This document shows, piece by piece, positions 753 through 5,860 of a stretch of 64,000 nucleotides of DNA. Position 1 is the first letter of the stretch. Each line of letters begins with the position of its first letter. Both the position numbers and the translations under genes were made by a program. The DNA is from Alphaproteobacteria bacterium (GTDB taxonomy: Bacteria > Pseudomonadota > Alphaproteobacteria > Caulobacterales > Maricaulaceae), in the NCBI GenBank assembly GCA_024278855.1, contig JAJRSJ010000009.1, forward strand, positions 1-64,000, written 5' to 3'. The notes beneath the pieces were generated by a model, which did no database searches, was not told where the DNA came from, and worked only from the letters and a program-made list of their open reading frames with translations.

Positions 753-2237
753 TTAACGAGGCGCAGGATTATTACCCTTAGGTTTAATACTGTGCTCTTC
801 ATGTCGATTAACATTTCTCTCACCTTCATGCCCTCTTTTTGGCTTGGCTTTTAACTCAGATTTAATATTTCTACCAGGGCCTTGATCGGGTATAGGTGAA
901 TCTGGATCGTTGTTACCTGTACCTAATTCACGGCGTGTTTCCGATTGTCTTTTTGAAACTTCTCCTGGGCTGTAAGGATCACCGTCTAAAGCTGGACTCC
1001 CAGGTTTTGCGCCATCATCTTGGGCATCTTGGTTTTCGCCACTGCTCTCCCCTGAATCTTCGCCCGATGAATCATTTACCATTGGAGCTGTTAATGTTTC
1101 CGTTGCGGAGATTATTTCTGCGGCTCGTTTCGCCGCACTAGCCGCTTTTGCTACTTTTCTCAATGCTTGACCAGTTTTGTAGGCACGGTAACCCCATATT
1201 GCAACAGGAATAGCAAGTGGTACCATCCCCGTCGGATCAATCATATTCAGCGGATCATTGTTGACGTAGGTATAGCGGTTGAACATATACGGCGCACCGG
1301 GACTAAACCCTACCGGATCGATACTCAAAAACCTCCCAATAAGCGGATCATAGTACCTCGCTTGCATATAGTTCAAACCCGTGGCGCTGTCTTTTATGTG
1401 GCCTGTGTATCCTGCCAAATCCGCGTTGCTCAGCGGGTTGGTCATGGTTTCGCCAAACGGCATGTATTGCGCCCTGAGCGTTAGCGAGGAAGTACCCTTG
1501 GGGTGTTCGCGCCAGGCTACCGTGCCGTTGGTGCTTGTTCCGGTTTGGGCGCTACCTAGATGGTCCATGTGCAAATAGGTTGGGGTGTCTGTGCCGTTTG
1601 CGGTTTTTATGCGCACGAATTTCCCGATGTAATCTGTAAGTTTATTATCCGTGGGGTCGGTGATATCACCTTGATTGTCGATATGCACCAAAGTCCCGGA
1701 TTGATCATAAACATTGTAAATCGTCTTGCCGTCCACAACGGCTTTCACCCGACGTTTGTTGCCGTCATATCTATAGGTGCCAGACGCCGTGCCGGAGATG
1801 TACAGGGGTTGGTTGGTACGACTATAGGTGAAGAACAATCCGCCCAACTGCGTGACATTGCACCCCAGGAGTACTTCCTCGCTAACGCTCAGGGCGCCCC
1901 GGTTATCATAGGTCAGGGTTCTATTCGGCCCGCCGCTGTCCCTATGACTGACCAAACGGTTTTCACTATCATAGCTCATCACAAGCGCCCGTGACCCCTC
2001 GGCTCTGCCCCCGCGAAGTCGCCGCGCTGCGTAGCGAGTACTCTTGGGGTGCCGACAGGCGGGCGGAAACAAGGCGGGCGCACGGCGAGCAAGCAAAGTG
2101 CATCGAGCGGCTGTCGGGTTATCGGTGTGCGCCGTGACCAAATGCAAATGGCAGTTATCGTTGGCGGCTTGGTAAAATTCAGGGGTGTTTGTCTGGCCGG
2201 GTTCGGCAGGCGTTATATATGCAAGTGCGGTGGACAT
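753..2237 (-). CDS. RHS repeat-associated core protein, 5'-truncated, with C-terminal toxin tip
   Basis: Residues from about 85 to 340 are RHS/YD-repeat sequence (YDSENRLVSHRD, TYDNRG, YRYDGNKRRVKAV). They end in the RHS-associated core (NYMQARYYDPLIGRFLSIDP) and the usual closing motif MIDPTGM. The roughly 155 residues after that are the variable tip, expected to be the toxin: an Ala/Lys helix, a Ser/Asp/Glu-rich linker and a basic tail ending NRHEEHSIKPKGN. I do not recognise the tip family. Full RHS proteins usually exceed 1,000 residues, so the N-terminal shell and secretion region are missing. The first 80 or so residues are low-complexity sequence unlike RHS, so the true start is uncertain. 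Three copies of a small repeat lie inside the reading frame. Confidence 0.7.
   Translation of the reverse strand: MSTALAYITPAEPGQTNTPEFYQAANDNCHLHLVTAHTDNPTAARCTLLARRAPALFPPACRHPKSTRYAARRLRGGRAEGSRALVMSYDSENRLVSHRDSGGPNRTLTYDNRGALSVSEEVLLGCNVTQLGGLFFTYSRTNQPLYISGTASGTYRYDGNKRRVKAVVDGKTIYNVYDQSGTLVHIDNQGDITDPTDNKLTDYIGKFVRIKTANGTDTPTYLHMDHLGSAQTGTSTNGTVAWREHPKGTSSLTLRAQYMPFGETMTNPLSNADLAGYTGHIKDSATGLNYMQARYYDPLIGRFLSIDPVGFSPGAPYMFNRYTYVNNDPLNMIDPTGMVPLAIPVAIWGYRAYKTGQALRKVAKAASAAKRAAEIISATETLTAPMVNDSSGEDSGESSGENQDAQDDGAKPGSPALDGDPYSPGEVSKRQSETRRELGTGNNDPDSPIPDQGPGRNIKSELKAKPKRGHEGERNVNRHEEHSIKPKGNNPAPR
1469..1505 (+). repeat. 37-bp small repeat, copy A (others at 1861-1897 inverted and 2021-2051 partial)
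   Basis: The segment beginning GCGCCCTGAGCGTTAGCGAG recurs in inverted orientation at 1861-1897 with 35 of 37 matches. A diverged partial copy in the forward orientation lies at about 2021-2051, sharing the TAGCGAG and CTTGGGGTG blocks. All lie inside the RHS reading frame. The two orientations are read in frame as HPKGTSSLTLRAQ and GALSVSEEVLLGC, so the repeat contributes peptide sequence in both directions without breaking the frame. Confidence 0.65.
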
Positions 2238-2404: not shown

Positions 2405-2757
2405 TTTACCCGTGTGGCGACGCAAACCGAAGGCTAAGGTGATAGTCCATTCAGACCAAGGAAGCCAATTTACAAGCGCGGAGAGGCAGTCTTTCTTAGC
2501 AGCGCACAATCTGGAAGCCAGTATGAGCCGGAGAGGAAACTGCTATGATAATGCTGTGGCGGAAAGCTTCTTCCACCTGCTCAGTGCGAAGCCTCCTTCT
2601 TAGGGAAACAGAGCGGATCAGGCGCAAAACTTACAAAACACGGACATTAGCACGACAAGACGTGTTCGATTATATCGAAATGTTCTATAATTCGCGGCGA
2701 AAACATGGTAAGTGCGGGATGTTGTCACCTGCTCAGTTCGAGATGGCAACAAAATGA
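2405..2757 (+). pseudogene. IS3-family transposase (OrfB) remnant, C-terminal part, frameshifted
   Basis: The forward strand encodes the C-terminal part of an IS3-type integrase-core transposase. It shows VIVHSDQGSQFTS (second catalytic Asp) and NCYDNAVAESFFHLL (catalytic Glu) in one frame, then ERIRRKTYKTR...QDVFDYIEMFYNSRRKH in another frame. Extra bases around 2583-2613 break the frame between HLL and ERIRR. The N-terminal half and OrfA are absent. A probable right end of this element, GTGTCTACAAATCT followed by AGGGGC, is itself split by the transposon at 2781-5184. The gene cannot make an active transposase. Confidence 0.75.
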
Positions 2758-2953
2758 AGGTACAAGGTGTCTACAAATCTGGTAGTGTCTCACTTTGAAA
2801 TCTGACTGCGATTTAATGTCACGGGGTATTCTAATCCACGGCTTCCGTGCCTATGTTATAAGTAGTTCTTTGCCAATAAGGATTGCAAATAACATAGAGT
2901 TTACTTGCTAACGGCAAATGAATTGGTTAACAACTGACCAAAGGAAGGACGCC

Positions 2954-3168
2954 ATGCCAAAAGGCCCAAGTGGAGAAAAACGCCCCGCAGACGTAATCGG
3001 TGCCGCCGTAATGGTTGCTCAAATTGCTGTTGGTGATGTTGAAGACGTGAAATCGTCTGGACGCCGTGCGTCAGGTATCGCGGGTGCAAAAGCTCGTGCG
3101 GCAAGCCTTTCTGCCAAAAGCGTTCTGATATAGCTCGTAAAGCAGCGGAGCAAAGATGGAAGCGTTAA
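2954..3168 (+). pseudogene. Small transposon cargo protein, probably frameshifted near its end
   Basis: The start at 2954 follows a good ribosome-binding site (AAGGAAGG at 2941-2948). The protein reads MPKGPSGEKRPADVIGAAVM and continues with an Ala/Arg-rich stretch. In the zero frame it stops at 3133 after SLSAKSVLI. Shifting by -1 after the Lys codon at 3116-3118 restores KRSDIARKAAEQRWKR and a stop at 3166-3168, overlapping the start of the protease gene. This C-terminus resembles the basic tails of many small alphaproteobacterial proteins of unknown function. The simplest reading is loss of one A from a run of five. Sequencing error or programmed slippage are alternatives. Confidence 0.55.
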
Positions 3169-4055
3169 GTGTAGATGAGCTTTCTAACCATGTCCTGAAG
3201 CAGATGAACGCAGAGGTAGGTGAACAACTTAAGGGCGATTGTGTGTTTATCAATTGCGATATGTTTCCGCCTCTTGACGATGAATGTCGTGTGGTAATTG
3301 AGGGTTTGACAGCAGGTAAAGTTGGCAAGCATCTCATTGTTATATTGCACACATCTGGCGGTTACATGGAGACTGTCGAGCGCCTTGTTTCTGTGATGCG
3401 TGCTAATTATAAAAAAGTCTCGTTTGTTATACCAAATTATGCTTATTCAGCTGGCACGGTATTGGTTATGTCGGGAGATATGATCTACATGGACTATTAC
3501 TCAGTCCTTGGGCCGATTGACCCTCAATATCCAGGAGAGGATGGGGGTTTCCTGCCAGGAATGGGCTATCTATCGAAATTTAAAGAACTGGTTAATACAA
3601 TCAATGGTAGTGATGCTGATAATCCAAATGCTTGTAAAGCTGAGCTAGCATACTTGGTGAAAAATTTCGATCCTGCTCGGCTATTTCATGTTGAGCAAGC
3701 AATTGCACATGGTGTCACTTTGATCAAAGCATGGCTTCCAAAATATAAATTTAAAAATTGGAAGAAAACTGAAACTAATGGAAAAAGCGTTACAAAAACT
3801 ATGCGAGAAGAAAGGGCAGAAAAAATTGCCAAAGTGTTAGGTAATGCAAAAAAATGGCATTCTCATGGTCGTGGAATTTCTATGCGTGAGCTTGCAGGCG
3901 AAGAAATCAAACTAATCGTTGAGGATTTTGGTGCTGATCCAGAACTTAATATGGCTATTCGTAACTACCACGGTTTGGCTGTGGACTATTATCAAACAAA
4001 GTCTCGAGTAAGAGGCTTTATTCACTCAAAGTTGGGACTGAGGAGAGTACTATGA
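3156..4055 (+). CDS. ClpP-fold serine protease of the SDH (serine dehydrogenase proteinase) type, transposon cargo
   Basis: This 299-residue cytoplasmic protein has the crotonase/ClpP-type core. LHTSGGYMETVERLV at about 65-79 contains the conserved HTSGG loop. AYSAGTVLVMSGD carries the probable nucleophile Ser98, and YSVLGPIDPQ at about 115-124 is a hallmark of the SDH_sah family. There is no signal peptide or transmembrane segment, unlike SppA. The C-terminal third (RGISMRELAGEEIKLIVEDFG) is helical. The gene overlaps the next by 4 bp (ATGA), and both lie between the transposon ends, so it moves with the element. Its substrate is unknown. Codon use is AT-rich compared with flanking housekeeping genes. 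Confidence 0.8.
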   Translation: MEALSVDELSNHVLKQMNAEVGEQLKGDCVFINCDMFPPLDDECRVVIEGLTAGKVGKHLIVILHTSGGYMETVERLVSVMRANYKKVSFVIPNYAYSAGTVLVMSGDMIYMDYYSVLGPIDPQYPGEDGGFLPGMGYLSKFKELVNTINGSDADNPNACKAELAYLVKNFDPARLFHVEQAIAHGVTLIKAWLPKYKFKNWKKTETNGKSVTKTMREERAEKIAKVLGNAKKWHSHGRGISMRELAGEEIKLIVEDFGADPELNMAIRNYHGLAVDYYQTKSRVRGFIHSKLGLRRVL

Positions 4056-4243
4056 CGCGCAGAAAGAAGGAAAAAACAACACCTACAAACCCTTATGAAA
4101 AGGTATTTGATGATGCACATAAGCGTTTGTCAGACGCAAAGATAGATTACCTAGACACAATCCCAACACCATCTAACTCAAAAGGATTTGTTGCCCCTTT
4201 TCCCTATGGACGCCCGACAAATCAATCGGCTGGTTGGAATTAA
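4052..4243 (+). CDS. Small hypothetical protein translationally coupled to the transposon protease
   Basis: This 63-residue protein starts within the ATGA overlap with the protease stop codon, implying coupled translation and a possible shared role. It starts MTRRKKEKTT and is basic at the N-terminus. The rest is polar with a Pro/Gly-rich end (GFVAPFPYGRPTNQ) and no membrane segment. I recognise no family. It could be an accessory or substrate-adaptor protein for the protease, but this rests only on gene order. Confidence 0.55.
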   Translation: MTRRKKEKTTPTNPYEKVFDDAHKRLSDAKIDYLDTIPTPSNSKGFVAPFPYGRPTNQSAGWN

Positions 4244-4293
4244 AACTGAAAATAATGCTTGCTATTAGGCAATAAGTTCAGTATAAAATAGGT

Positions 4294-5175
4294 ATGAACA
4301 AGCTACCTATACATAAACGCACAATGATTTTAAACATGATGGTTGAAGGCATGTCCATGCGGGCAATCTCTCGCACCGTTGGCGTCTCAATTAACACTGT
4401 TACCAAGCTATTGATTGAAGCTGGCGAAGCTTGTGCCGAATACCATCATAATGCAGTCCGTAATGTGAAAGCCGATAAAGTCCAGTGTGATGAAATCTGG
4501 TCATTCTGCTATGCCAAAAAGAAAAATGTCGAGAAAGCTAAATCCGCACCAGAGTTTGCAGGTGATATATGGACGTGGACTGCGATTGATGCGGACAGCA
4601 AGCTGATTATCTCTTATCTTGTTGGTGGTCGAGATGGTGATTATGCGTTAGAGTTTATGTGTGACGTTCGAGACCGCCTAGCTAACCGCGTTCAATTGAC
4701 CACAGACGGCCATAAAGCATACCTAGAAGCCGTTGAAGAAGCTTTTGGTGCAGATGTAGACTATGCGCAACTTGTGAAGATATACGGCAAATCAGACGAA
4801 AAGGCGAAAGGTCGTTATAGCCCAGCCAAATGTACGGCTATCAAGAAAAACCGCATCGAGGGCAATCCTGATGAAAACTATATTTCGACTTCTTATGTGG
4901 AGCGCCAAAACCTAACTATGAGAATGTCTATGCGCCGCTTTACACGGCTTACAAATGGATTTTCTAAAAAGATTGATAATCACATTCACATGCTTTCGCT
5001 GTATTTTGTGCATTATAATTTTTGCCGCATTCACAAGACGTTGAAAGTTAGCCCTGCTATGGAAGCGGGCATATCTAATGAGTTGCGCAATACAGAATGG
5101 ATTGTTGGTCTAATGGACGCCCGTGCGCCCAAGCCTACTAAACGCGGGCCTTATAAGAAAAGAAATTCAAAGTGA
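4294..5175 (+). CDS. IS1-like DDE transposase
   Basis: This 293-residue transposase starts with a helix-turn-helix (MSMRAISRTVGVSINTVTKL, about 18-37). The catalytic core follows: QCDEIWSF gives the first Asp, TTDGHKAYLEA the second, and YVERQNLTMRMSMRRFTRLT the Glu with the IS1-type signature around it. The end is basic (KPTKRGPYKKRNSK). It is a single frame, unlike classical IS1 with its InsA/InsB frameshift. It is the only transposase in the element, and its stop codon lies inside the right terminal repeat. The family call rests on recalled IS1-group signatures. Confidence 0.85.
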   Translation: MNKLPIHKRTMILNMMVEGMSMRAISRTVGVSINTVTKLLIEAGEACAEYHHNAVRNVKADKVQCDEIWSFCYAKKKNVEKAKSAPEFAGDIWTWTAIDADSKLIISYLVGGRDGDYALEFMCDVRDRLANRVQLTTDGHKAYLEAVEEAFGADVDYAQLVKIYGKSDEKAKGRYSPAKCTAIKKNRIEGNPDENYISTSYVERQNLTMRMSMRRFTRLTNGFSKKIDNHIHMLSLYFVHYNFCRIHKTLKVSPAMEAGISNELRNTEWIVGLMDARAPKPTKRGPYKKRNSK

Positions 5176-5260
5176 GACACTACCACAAATCTAGGGGCAC
5201 ATCACTGTCACCGATTTAAATATCGCCGAACTGACTTGTGTTTTATACACTGCAAGTGCA

Positions 5261-5860
5261 TTATTGTACACCACTTGTCACAGGAAGCAGGCTACCCCTA
5301 TCATCGTGTTGCGTAAAAAGCTCTGCAAATTCAGAAATTAACCAATCATCAAAACTTGCCCACTCCCATGAGAAGTCGTCGGGGTCTTGACGGTCATATT
5401 CAATTATAGGACCTTCATTAGCCATCGAAATTATCCATGTGTTTGCTCCCTCATTTTTACCAATGACAATTACATCTTCGGGAAACGATTGTAGCCAAGT
5501 AAATTTATTTTGAGTTGTTATGTCCACAGGAAAGCGCCAAGGATGAGCTTCGTATCCTGGAAGGTATGTTCTTTGGAAAACACCAAAAATATTTAAGCCG
5601 CTTGGACTATAAAAACTCGCTCCATTTGACAGCTTTAAGAATTCCATTAATTGTTCTGGAAACACCTTTGTAAGTTTCTCTTCAGCTAATTTTATAGACT
5701 CATCAGTTGCAGGGCTATACAATTCATGCATGTAACCGTAAGGCGCGTCTTTAAATATATGGCCAATGTACTTTGTTCCATATTCATCAGTTTTTTGCCC
5801 CAATGGCGCCCACCTTTCAAGTGGCTTAAGGATGTGCTTTTGAAATATCTCAGAGTTCAT
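5261..5860 (-). CDS. SMI1/KNR4 (SUKH) domain protein, probable orphan immunity protein
   Basis: This 199-residue protein has the SUKH signature. The helix and loop LTKVFPEQLMEFLKLSNGAS at about 78-97 are followed by the glycine-containing strand NIFGVF, and the C-terminus has WEWASFDDWLISEFAELF. SUKH proteins commonly neutralise nuclease-type polymorphic toxins. Here no toxin gene lies directly upstream on the same strand. The nearest is the RHS fragment about 3 kb away, beyond a transposon and an IS remnant. It may therefore be an immunity gene left behind when its toxin was displaced. The domain call is from motif recognition; the immunity role is inference. Confidence 0.7.
   Translation of the reverse strand: MNSEIFQKHILKPLERWAPLGQKTDEYGTKYIGHIFKDAPYGYMHELYSPATDESIKLAEEKLTKVFPEQLMEFLKLSNGASFYSPSGLNIFGVFQRTYLPGYEAHPWRFPVDITTQNKFTWLQSFPEDVIVIGKNEGANTWIISMANEGPIIEYDRQDPDDFSWEWASFDDWLISEFAELFTQHDDRGSLLPVTSGVQ

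What the first reader, a model, noticed from the sequence alone, without database searches (positions are those of the whole stretch)
2781..5184. Complete transposon carrying a ClpP-fold SDH protease and two small genes
Perfect 19-bp terminal repeats, an 8-bp duplication ACAAATCT and an IS1-like transposase enclose three cargo genes: a basic small protein, a serine protease with HTSGG/YSAGT/GPIDPQ motifs and a coupled 63-residue protein. Passenger proteases in a small IS are unusual. The protease could act on host or phage proteins, or on the transposase itself.
Basis: partly seen in the sequence, partly recalled or inferred. Interest (0 to 1): 0.8.

Follow-up and report, generated by a model that had tools for sequence, protein, structure and literature searches.

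The report
Jumping gene carrying a protease module
A small bacterial jumping gene carries a protein-cutting enzyme with a tiny partner protein, and it belongs to a family of jumping genes that share one frame and swap cargo, part of which resembles toxin-antitoxin and anti-virus genes.

Summary
Window 2781-5184 is a complete IS1-like transposon with perfect 19-bp ends and an 8-bp target duplication; uninterrupted copies of the target IS show the empty site.

The first small gene (A) is not cargo: 56 of 57 delimited elements with this transposase have an A-like sequence. Ends + A + transposase form a chassis. Cargo is exchanged: of 43 elements without the protease, 18 carry RmrA-, PD-lambda-2/HigA-, SocA/Panacea- or Fic/PemK-like genes; most of the rest is unidentified.

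The window's real cargo is a ClpP-fold SDH-type protease plus a coupled 63-residue protein (C). The pair recurs across many phyla inside and outside transposons. In lambda-like prophages it lies directly behind the CI/LexA-type repressor, where lambda keeps rexAB.

I read the pair as a toxin-antitoxin-like or abortive-infection protease module. Mobility, chassis and cargo exchange are shown; proteolysis, control by C and phage defence are inferred. Ten open-access literature searches listed no description. Against: this cargo is rare (4 of 47 elements reached by transposase searches), and neighbouring genes gave no clear defence enrichment.

The parts
2773..2780 (.). left target-site duplication ACAAATCT
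   Evidence: empty site
2781..2799 (+). left inverted repeat, 19 of 19 with the right end
2954..3133 (+). chassis gene A (small basic protein), reading frame interrupted here: the C-terminal half that relatives show lies in another frame and reaches about 3168
   Evidence: HMM hits in two frames, E 1.3e-17 and 2.9e-5; intact relative L041:7672-7911
3156..4055 (+). cargo gene 1: ClpP-fold SDH-type serine protease, 299 aa, Ser98 invariant
4052..4243 (+). cargo gene 2 (C): 63-aa partner, start overlaps the protease stop by 4 bp
4294..5175 (+). IS1-like single-ORF DDE transposase, 293 aa, N-terminal HTH
5166..5184 (-). right inverted repeat, overlaps the transposase stop
5185..5192 (.). right target-site duplication ACAAATCT
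2581..2780 (+). right part of the target IS (IS3-like by its encoded motif, recalled), interrupted by the transposon; the match to other copies resumes at 5193 and ends about 5204

Best explanation
The unit is a cargo transposon of an IS1-like family. Its chassis is two ~20-bp ends, a small accessory protein A and a single-ORF DDE transposase; it inserts with 8-bp duplications. Between A and the transposase, and sometimes behind the transposase, the family carries exchangeable modules, of which a good part (18 of 43 elements without the protease) is toxin-antitoxin or abortive-infection-like. In the window the module is a two-gene operon: a ClpP-fold SDH-type serine protease and a coupled ~63-aa protein C. 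Most likely mechanism: the protease, presumably cytosolic, is held in check by C, a short protein predicted (with low confidence) as a helix plus a loose tail with a conserved P(Y/F)(S/G)-like motif. A trigger, probably phage infection, releases it, and it cleaves host or phage proteins so that the infection fails. Shown: ends, target duplication, empty site, chassis, cargo exchange, conservation of the protease + C pair, invariant Ser and Asp and nearly invariant His, the post-repressor position in prophages. Inferred: proteolytic activity, C as inhibitor, the trigger and the defence phenotype.
For: Transposon family: of 86 transposase places (tblastn E <= 1e-8 in the fetched loci), 57 elements could be delimited. 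42 of 57 have an exact 8-bp duplication and 51 of 57 ends match at 18 or more of 20 (the choice of end pairs favoured duplications). An A-like sequence is in 56 of 57 (28 of them seeded the model), 51 on the transposase strand; L191 is A + transposase alone, 1365 bp. Cargo exchange: on a tree of 53 transposases the 10 cargo labels need 29 changes and the protease at least 5 by well-supported branches; L041 (protease) and L144 (SocA) are sisters at 100/98. Published context: PD-lambda-2 is a TA-like Abi system (PMC9519451, passages). Protease + C: S98 121/121, D122 121/121, H237 120/121; ClpP fold, pLDDT 96, VIA-align Z 14.0 to 7eko. A small ORF directly follows the protease in 86 of 95 loci against 664 of 4379 random positions; split-half HMMs at E<0.1 gave 35 hits in 47 loci, 33 of them at the C position. 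Prophage position: the nearest upstream ORF (70 aa or more) carries Peptidase_S24, the LexA/CI-type domain, in 10 of 24 non-redundant viral loci. In all four E. coli regions read the pair follows a LexA-family repressor, in one with a small ORF between. Accessory genes on the cI transcript, such as rexAB and hex, exclude other phages in several cases (PMC3564112, passages).
Against: PADLOC gave no hit for the protease or C. This cargo is rare: of 45 elements that came in by transposase searches only, L139 and L184 carry a protease, both divergent; with the window's and G129's, which those searches also hit, 4 of 47. Most other cargo is unidentified. Transposase and protease distances correlate only weakly (r 0.47, 380 of 5000 permutations as high, n 9). 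The cargo labels are also clustered on the tree (29 changes, shuffled mean 35). The fold of C is poorly predicted (pLDDT 72, pTM 0.29). 14 of 24 viral loci show no S24 repressor directly upstream. The window's A is frameshifted, so this copy may no longer move. No activity data exist.
Confidence: 0.55

Rival explanations
1. Addiction rather than defence: protease = toxin, C = antitoxin, and the pair mainly stabilises the transposon or its replicon against loss, as TA pairs may do in Tn3-family transposons.
For: Enzyme-then-small-partner operon, genes overlapping in the window; other members carry HigA-, SocA- and PemK-like TA genes; TA pairs are part of Tn3-family transposition modules (PMC7157771, passages); relatives of the protease occur on 33 of 72,556 plasmid records, 6 of them covering at least 80% of it.
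Against: A position behind the repressor in prophages fits superinfection exclusion better than addiction, though it does not exclude addiction.
Confidence: 0.2
2. C is an activator, adaptor or substrate-delivery factor and the pair is a regulatory or stress protease with no toxin logic, for example shaping lysogeny or a modifier pathway (Rhizobium plasmids place it behind multiubiquitin and ThiF genes).
For: Three Rhizobium plasmid loci have it behind multiubiquitin-domain and ThiF genes, two of them with an annotated DUF6527 gene between; hex of phage 434 lowers spontaneous induction by blocking repressor autocleavage (PMC3564112, passages).
Against: Does not by itself explain carriage on a transposon family with several TA- or Abi-like cargos.
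Confidence: 0.2
3. The protease regulates transposition by cutting the transposase or A.
For: Co-location within one element only.
Against: The protease + C pair is found without this transposase in the flanks of prophage, plasmid and chromosomal copies, and the same chassis occurs with unrelated cargo.
Confidence: 0.03

Closest known systems
IS1 family insertion sequences (single-ORF members)
   Same: IS1-like transposase by Pfam and by annotation of relatives; ends of about 20 bp that begin GGT (IS1 ends recalled); 8-bp duplications.
   Different: An extra small chassis gene A and exchangeable passenger modules; the window's NCBIfam IS1 score is 67 against a cut-off of 100; no InsA/InsB frameshift (IS1 details recalled).
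Tn3-family transposons with toxin-antitoxin pairs (PMC7157771, passages)
   Same: Transposon family with varied TA pairs acquired several times.
   Different: Different transposase class and size; there the TA pairs abut the res site and resolvase gene; here modules sit in a 1.4-5.6 kb IS-like element.
lambda rexAB, 434 hex and similar lysogeny-expressed accessory genes (PMC3564112, passages)
   Same: Placed directly behind the CI-type repressor in lambdoid prophages.
   Different: Here a ClpP-fold protease and a ~56-aa partner; no phenotype known.
SDH family Clp fold serine proteinase (NCBIfam NF047768, Pfam PF01972)
   Same: Clp fold; the core around Ser98 matches both models; RefSeq gives this name to the E. 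coli prophage copies.
   Different: The window's score (60.6) is far below the equivalog cut-off of 250; extra C-terminal region with nearly invariant His237; coupled to C.
PD-lambda-2 and RmrTA
   Same: Models of their components match cargo of sister elements; PD-lambda-2 is TA-like and contains an HTH-peptidase fusion.
   Different: Different protease class and different partner from the window's pair.

Membership tests
IS1 family | DDE transposase of IS1 type | tested here: met
   Pfam PF03400 24.6 bits, cut-off 24.1; relatives 29.5 and 30.1, but L073 only 19.6. NCBIfam NF033558 67.3 of 100 not reached, so a marginal member.
IS1 family | terminal repeats of about 20 bp and 8-9 bp target duplication | tested here: met
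IS1 family | two-frame InsA/InsB programmed frameshift (recalled; not required for single-ORF subgroups) | tested here: not met
   single open frame of 293 aa
SDH/ClpP-fold serine protease | ClpP fold | tested here: met
   model pLDDT 96; VIA-align Z 14.0, rmsd 4.3, 184 aligned to 7eko; profile match to ClpP and the 1510-N protease in PDB
SDH/ClpP-fold serine protease | conserved nucleophile serine | tested here: met
   S98 in 121 of 121 non-redundant sequences
SDH/ClpP-fold serine protease | known catalytic base: Lys (1510-N type) or His/Asp (ClpP type) (types recalled) | tested here: inconclusive
   K141 in 63 of 121 only; H237 120 of 121 and D122 121 of 121, geometry not measured
NCBIfam NF047768 SDH family Clp fold serine proteinase | score at or above the curated cut-off | tested here: not met
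   60.6 of 250 bits
type II toxin-antitoxin system | two-gene operon, toxin plus small antitoxin | tested here: inconclusive
   the two-gene layout is met: overlap of 4 bp in the window; small ORF in 86 of 95 loci; which partner is toxic is unknown
type II toxin-antitoxin system | toxicity of one partner neutralised by the other | not testable with these tools
   needs expression experiments
known anti-phage defence system | match to a described system in PADLOC | tested here: not met
   PADLOC none for protease or C

The most novel reading that the evidence does not exclude
ClpP-fold SDH protease + C is an undescribed, phylum-spanning class of protease-based toxin-antitoxin or abortive-infection system. 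It is carried both behind prophage repressors and by an IS1-like cargo-transposon family whose conserved accessory protein A and fixed ends make it a general vehicle for swapping defence modules.
Probability: 0.4. Interest if true: 0.87.

Novelty: new variant of a known kind. Interest (0 to 1): 0.74.

Why it matters
It gives a concrete, small and testable vehicle for the movement of toxin-antitoxin and defence-like modules between unrelated bacteria, with a fixed chassis that can be used as a bait to find new cargo systems. It also points to a widespread protease + small-protein pair, placed where lambda keeps its exclusion genes, that the defence catalogue used here (PADLOC) does not contain.

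Tried and rejected
Protease acting on the transposase: rejected from its distribution (see rivals). A as cargo or as the antitoxin of the protease: rejected, because A accompanies unrelated cargo. Ser-Lys dyad as in 1510-N protease (K141; dyad recalled): not supported, K141 in 63 of 121. A close relative of the protease in viral contigs with a single-sequence query: none; the alignment query worked. Defence-island enrichment around non-transposon copies: no clear signal (the tool counts families, not proteins, and cut the near list at 25 of 55). Co-divergence of transposase and protease: weak. Fold of C: low confidence, no meaningful PDB match. Cluster c10 as a proteasome/HslV-like protease: only a recalled resemblance; Pfam and PDB gave nothing for L292. 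A in Pfam: nothing above cut-off. Programmed frameshifting in the window's A: considered; nothing in the frames speaks for it, and most relatives have A in one frame. Foldseek and VIA-align lists were filled by ClpP; absence of other folds says nothing. Cytosolic location is assumed; no membrane predictor was run. The listings of ten paper searches showed no description of this family or of this protease pair; most subscription journals and all bioRxiv preprints are absent from that library.

Selections made: of 80 viral protease loci the 20 most distant (L257-L276) were left out of the upstream-gene listing; L250 was left out of the upstream-gene scan because its upstream gene is A itself. 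47 of 94 candidate small ORFs were hand-picked for the C alignment. 45 cargo proteins were hand-picked for PADLOC and NCBIfam from the list, so the profile counts are not a census. Cargo labels rest on similarity clusters; only one or a few members of each cluster were profile-tested. 69 of 93 listed protease sequences went into the folding alignment. For the near/far test only non-redundant, non-transposon genome loci of at least 9 kb were used (31 loci). The 57 elements were not made non-redundant.

Full report
Observation. The window holds a 2404-bp element at 2781-5184 with perfect 19-bp terminal repeats and an 8-bp duplication ACAAATCT. With up to three mismatches the end occurs only twice in the own genome, at these two places. 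A 400-bp query joined from the two flanks matches relatives and one paralogue in the own genome without a break across the insertion point: G117:C108 over 28-212 at 90%, G000:C30 over 72-212 at 95% (C30 begins with this match, so that copy is cut by the contig end). Matches among the copies end at about position 212, so the element sits 12 bp inside the right end of a repeated IS. This is an empty-site proof of insertion.

Genes. From left to right: a small basic protein A (2954-3133), the protease (3156-4055, 299 aa), a 63-aa protein C whose start overlaps the protease stop (4052-4243), and a single-ORF transposase (4294-5175). The transposase just passes Pfam's IS1 cut-off and falls short of NCBIfam's IS1 model; relatives are annotated as IS1 family. 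The window's A is interrupted: the model of A matches two different frames in succession, while L041 has it intact. GC of the element is 42.8% against 50.4% in the window.

A second copy and a decayed copy. In a different genus of the same family, L041 (G129) has the same order A-protease-C-transposase between ends with 1 and 2 mismatches to the window's end; protease identity is 80%.

The family. Of 86 transposase places with tblastn E <= 1e-8, 57 could be delimited by paired ends; 29 could not, some of them lying at contig ends. 42 of 57 have an exact 8-bp duplication, 6 more match 7 of 8, and 51 of 57 pairs of ends agree at 18 or more of 20 positions (the selection score favoured duplications, so the duplication count is somewhat biased). 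Ends are GGTAGTG(TC or GG)TCAGTTTGAA with small changes. Sizes run from 1365 to 5556 bp, median 3006.

A is chassis, not cargo. An HMM of A built from 28 elements finds A at E < 1e-3 in 56 of 57 elements; the miss is L148. In 51 the best hit is on the transposase strand, in the part before the transposase; in L297, L298, L188, L307 and L109 it is on the other strand, in the last three less strongly. The smallest element, L191, consists of A and the transposase only. In L290, L307 and L186 an A-like stretch is part of a larger ORF; Pfam was run on L290 alone and found P63C.

Cargo and exchange. Clusters of cargo include the SDH-type protease (14 elements), two kinds of HTH-protein with an M78 metallopeptidase domain (8 and 6; one member of each tested), SocA/Panacea (5; one tested), and others. 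By the labels, 8 RmrA-type, 6 HigA/M78-type and 3 SocA-type elements, plus Fic/PemK in L148, make 18 of the 43 elements without the protease; the rest is mostly unidentified. Further profiles: nSTAND-like ATPase, P63C, Bro-N, GNAT. In PADLOC, 45 chosen cargo proteins match RmrA (3), PD-Lambda-2_B (2), RmrT (1), SoFic (1) and candidate systems (25 of 48 families shown); NCBIfam gives HigA (3), MqsA-type (3), SocA (2) and spr1629 (2) antitoxins. On a tree of 53 transposases the ten cargo labels need 29 changes (least possible 9); the protease needs 8, at least 5 forced by well-supported branches. L041 (protease) and L144 (SocA) are sisters with support 100/98. There is also some clustering (no shuffle of 200 was as low as 29). 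Sampling matters: 12 of the 57 elements came in through the window or protease queries. Of the other 45 only L139 and L184 carry a protease, and both are divergent (about 24-25% identity); with the window's and G129's elements, which the transposase search also hits, it is 4 of 47. The window's protease is therefore one cargo among many, not the hallmark of the family.

Spread of protease elements with delimited ends. By record titles these lie in Alphaproteobacteria and other Pseudomonadota (window's kin, L041, L046, L048, L050, L054, L139), Nitrospirae (L072), Phycisphaerae (L073), Capsulimonadaceae (L087), Solirubrobacterales (L093) and Bryobacterales (L109, deviant ends and transposase); L184 and L250 are viral contigs. 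Many are MAGs, so wrong binning is possible for single cases. In L054 the protease itself appears broken.

The protease. AlphaFold2 gives pLDDT 96, pTM 0.92 and a ClpP fold (best Z 14.0, rmsd 4.3, 184 residues; Foldseek E 4.7e-5). Across 121 non-redundant sequences S98 and D122 are invariant and H237 is in 120; K141, the place of a possible Ser-Lys dyad, is in 63. It aligns with ClpP around the nucleophile. The catalytic base is unsettled, and no distances could be measured.

The partner C. Directly behind the protease, within -20 to +30 bp of its stop, a 50-95 aa ORF begins in 86 of 95 usable loci; at random positions of the same loci this happens in 664 of 4379 (15%). C is poorly conserved overall, with a nearly invariant proline in a P(Y/F)(S/G)-like stretch. 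HMMs trained on one half of 47 chosen C sequences recover the other half: at E < 0.1, 35 hits, 33 at the C position; at E < 0.001, 22 of 22. Its model is weak (pLDDT 72). Protease + C is thus a two-gene module that exists with and without the transposon: of 92 loci fetched by protease or around it, 20 have a transposase match at E <= 0.01 in the held sequence (some contigs are short, and L042 and L045 are one locus).

Context outside the transposon. In E. coli, 19 of 5426 genomes have the pair (17 with at least 80% of the query). In the plasmid-borne region and three further regions that I read, it follows a LexA-family repressor on the same strand; in one of these a small ORF lies between. 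In 24 non-redundant viral loci the nearest upstream ORF carries Peptidase_S24 in 10 and HTH_3 in 8. This is the position of rexAB and hex, genes on the repressor transcript; RexAB and Hex exclude certain phages, and Hex also lowers spontaneous induction (PMC3564112, passages read). On three Rhizobium plasmids it lies behind multiubiquitin-domain and ThiF genes, in two of them with an annotated DUF6527 gene between. A near/far comparison of neighbours in 31 non-transposon loci gave defence families on both sides (near: DRT, DpdF, PsyrT, methyltransferase, PDC-S13 among 73 proteins; far: methyltransferase, mad3, CARF among 70), which I do not count as evidence.

Mechanism. The most economical reading is a module whose enzyme is dangerous and whose small partner controls it, used against phages or for addiction. 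Weight comes from three lines: its carriers (prophage repressor regions, plasmids, transposons), its companions in sister elements (TA-like Abi systems such as PD-lambda-2: PMC9519451, passages; Panacea antitoxins: PMC10440598, passages), and its architecture. I put defence or Abi at about 0.55, pure addiction at 0.2, a non-toxic regulatory role at 0.2, and action on the transposase at 0.03. None of the biochemistry is shown.

Novelty. TA pairs in transposons are known from Tn3-family elements (PMC7157771, passages), and passenger genes in IS are known in general (recalled). New here, as far as the listings of my ten searches reach, are an IS1-like family with a conserved second chassis gene and interchangeable cargo that includes TA/defence-like modules, and the protease + C module. 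Hence new variant of a known kind.

Noticed in passing
window 753-2237 (-) and 5261-5860 (-): An RHS-repeat-like ORF on the left and an SMI1/KNR4-like (immunity-type) ORF on the right, identified from recalled motifs only, flank the IS and the transposon: possibly a toxin-immunity locus split by insertions.
   Followed up: no
L033, L034, L036 (Rhizobium plasmids): Protease behind multiubiquitin-domain and ThiF E1-like genes (DUF6527 annotated in L033 and L034); the protease of L034 and L036 appears split.
   Followed up: partly
L037 (E. coli plasmid pSM107_MCR): A lambda-like prophage immunity and replication region, with the protease + C pair behind its repressor, sits on an IncI2 plasmid.
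   Followed up: no
L292:3580-4842, L183:3519-4778, L181: Another cargo family (c10, unknown, about 420 aa, ALAADSAVT motif) with a coupled 65-67 aa ORF behind it in L183 and L292: same architecture as protease + C.
   Followed up: partly
L290:3850-4932, L307:3887-5026, L186:3925-4884: ORFs whose N-terminal part contains an A-like motif; in L290 it precedes a P63C domain.
   Followed up: partly
L287 and L303: Elements with a HigB/RelE-like small gene (recalled motif), an HTH-peptidase gene and a third gene in one row: possibly a whole PD-lambda-2-like system as cargo. The PD-Lambda-2_B model matched two of the 45 scanned proteins, which the tool does not name; the peptidases of L141 and L303 were in that set.
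   Followed up: partly
G436 contig C1 (L279, L287, L310): One single-contig genome holds four places of this transposase, two of them partial, with different cargo.
   Followed up: no
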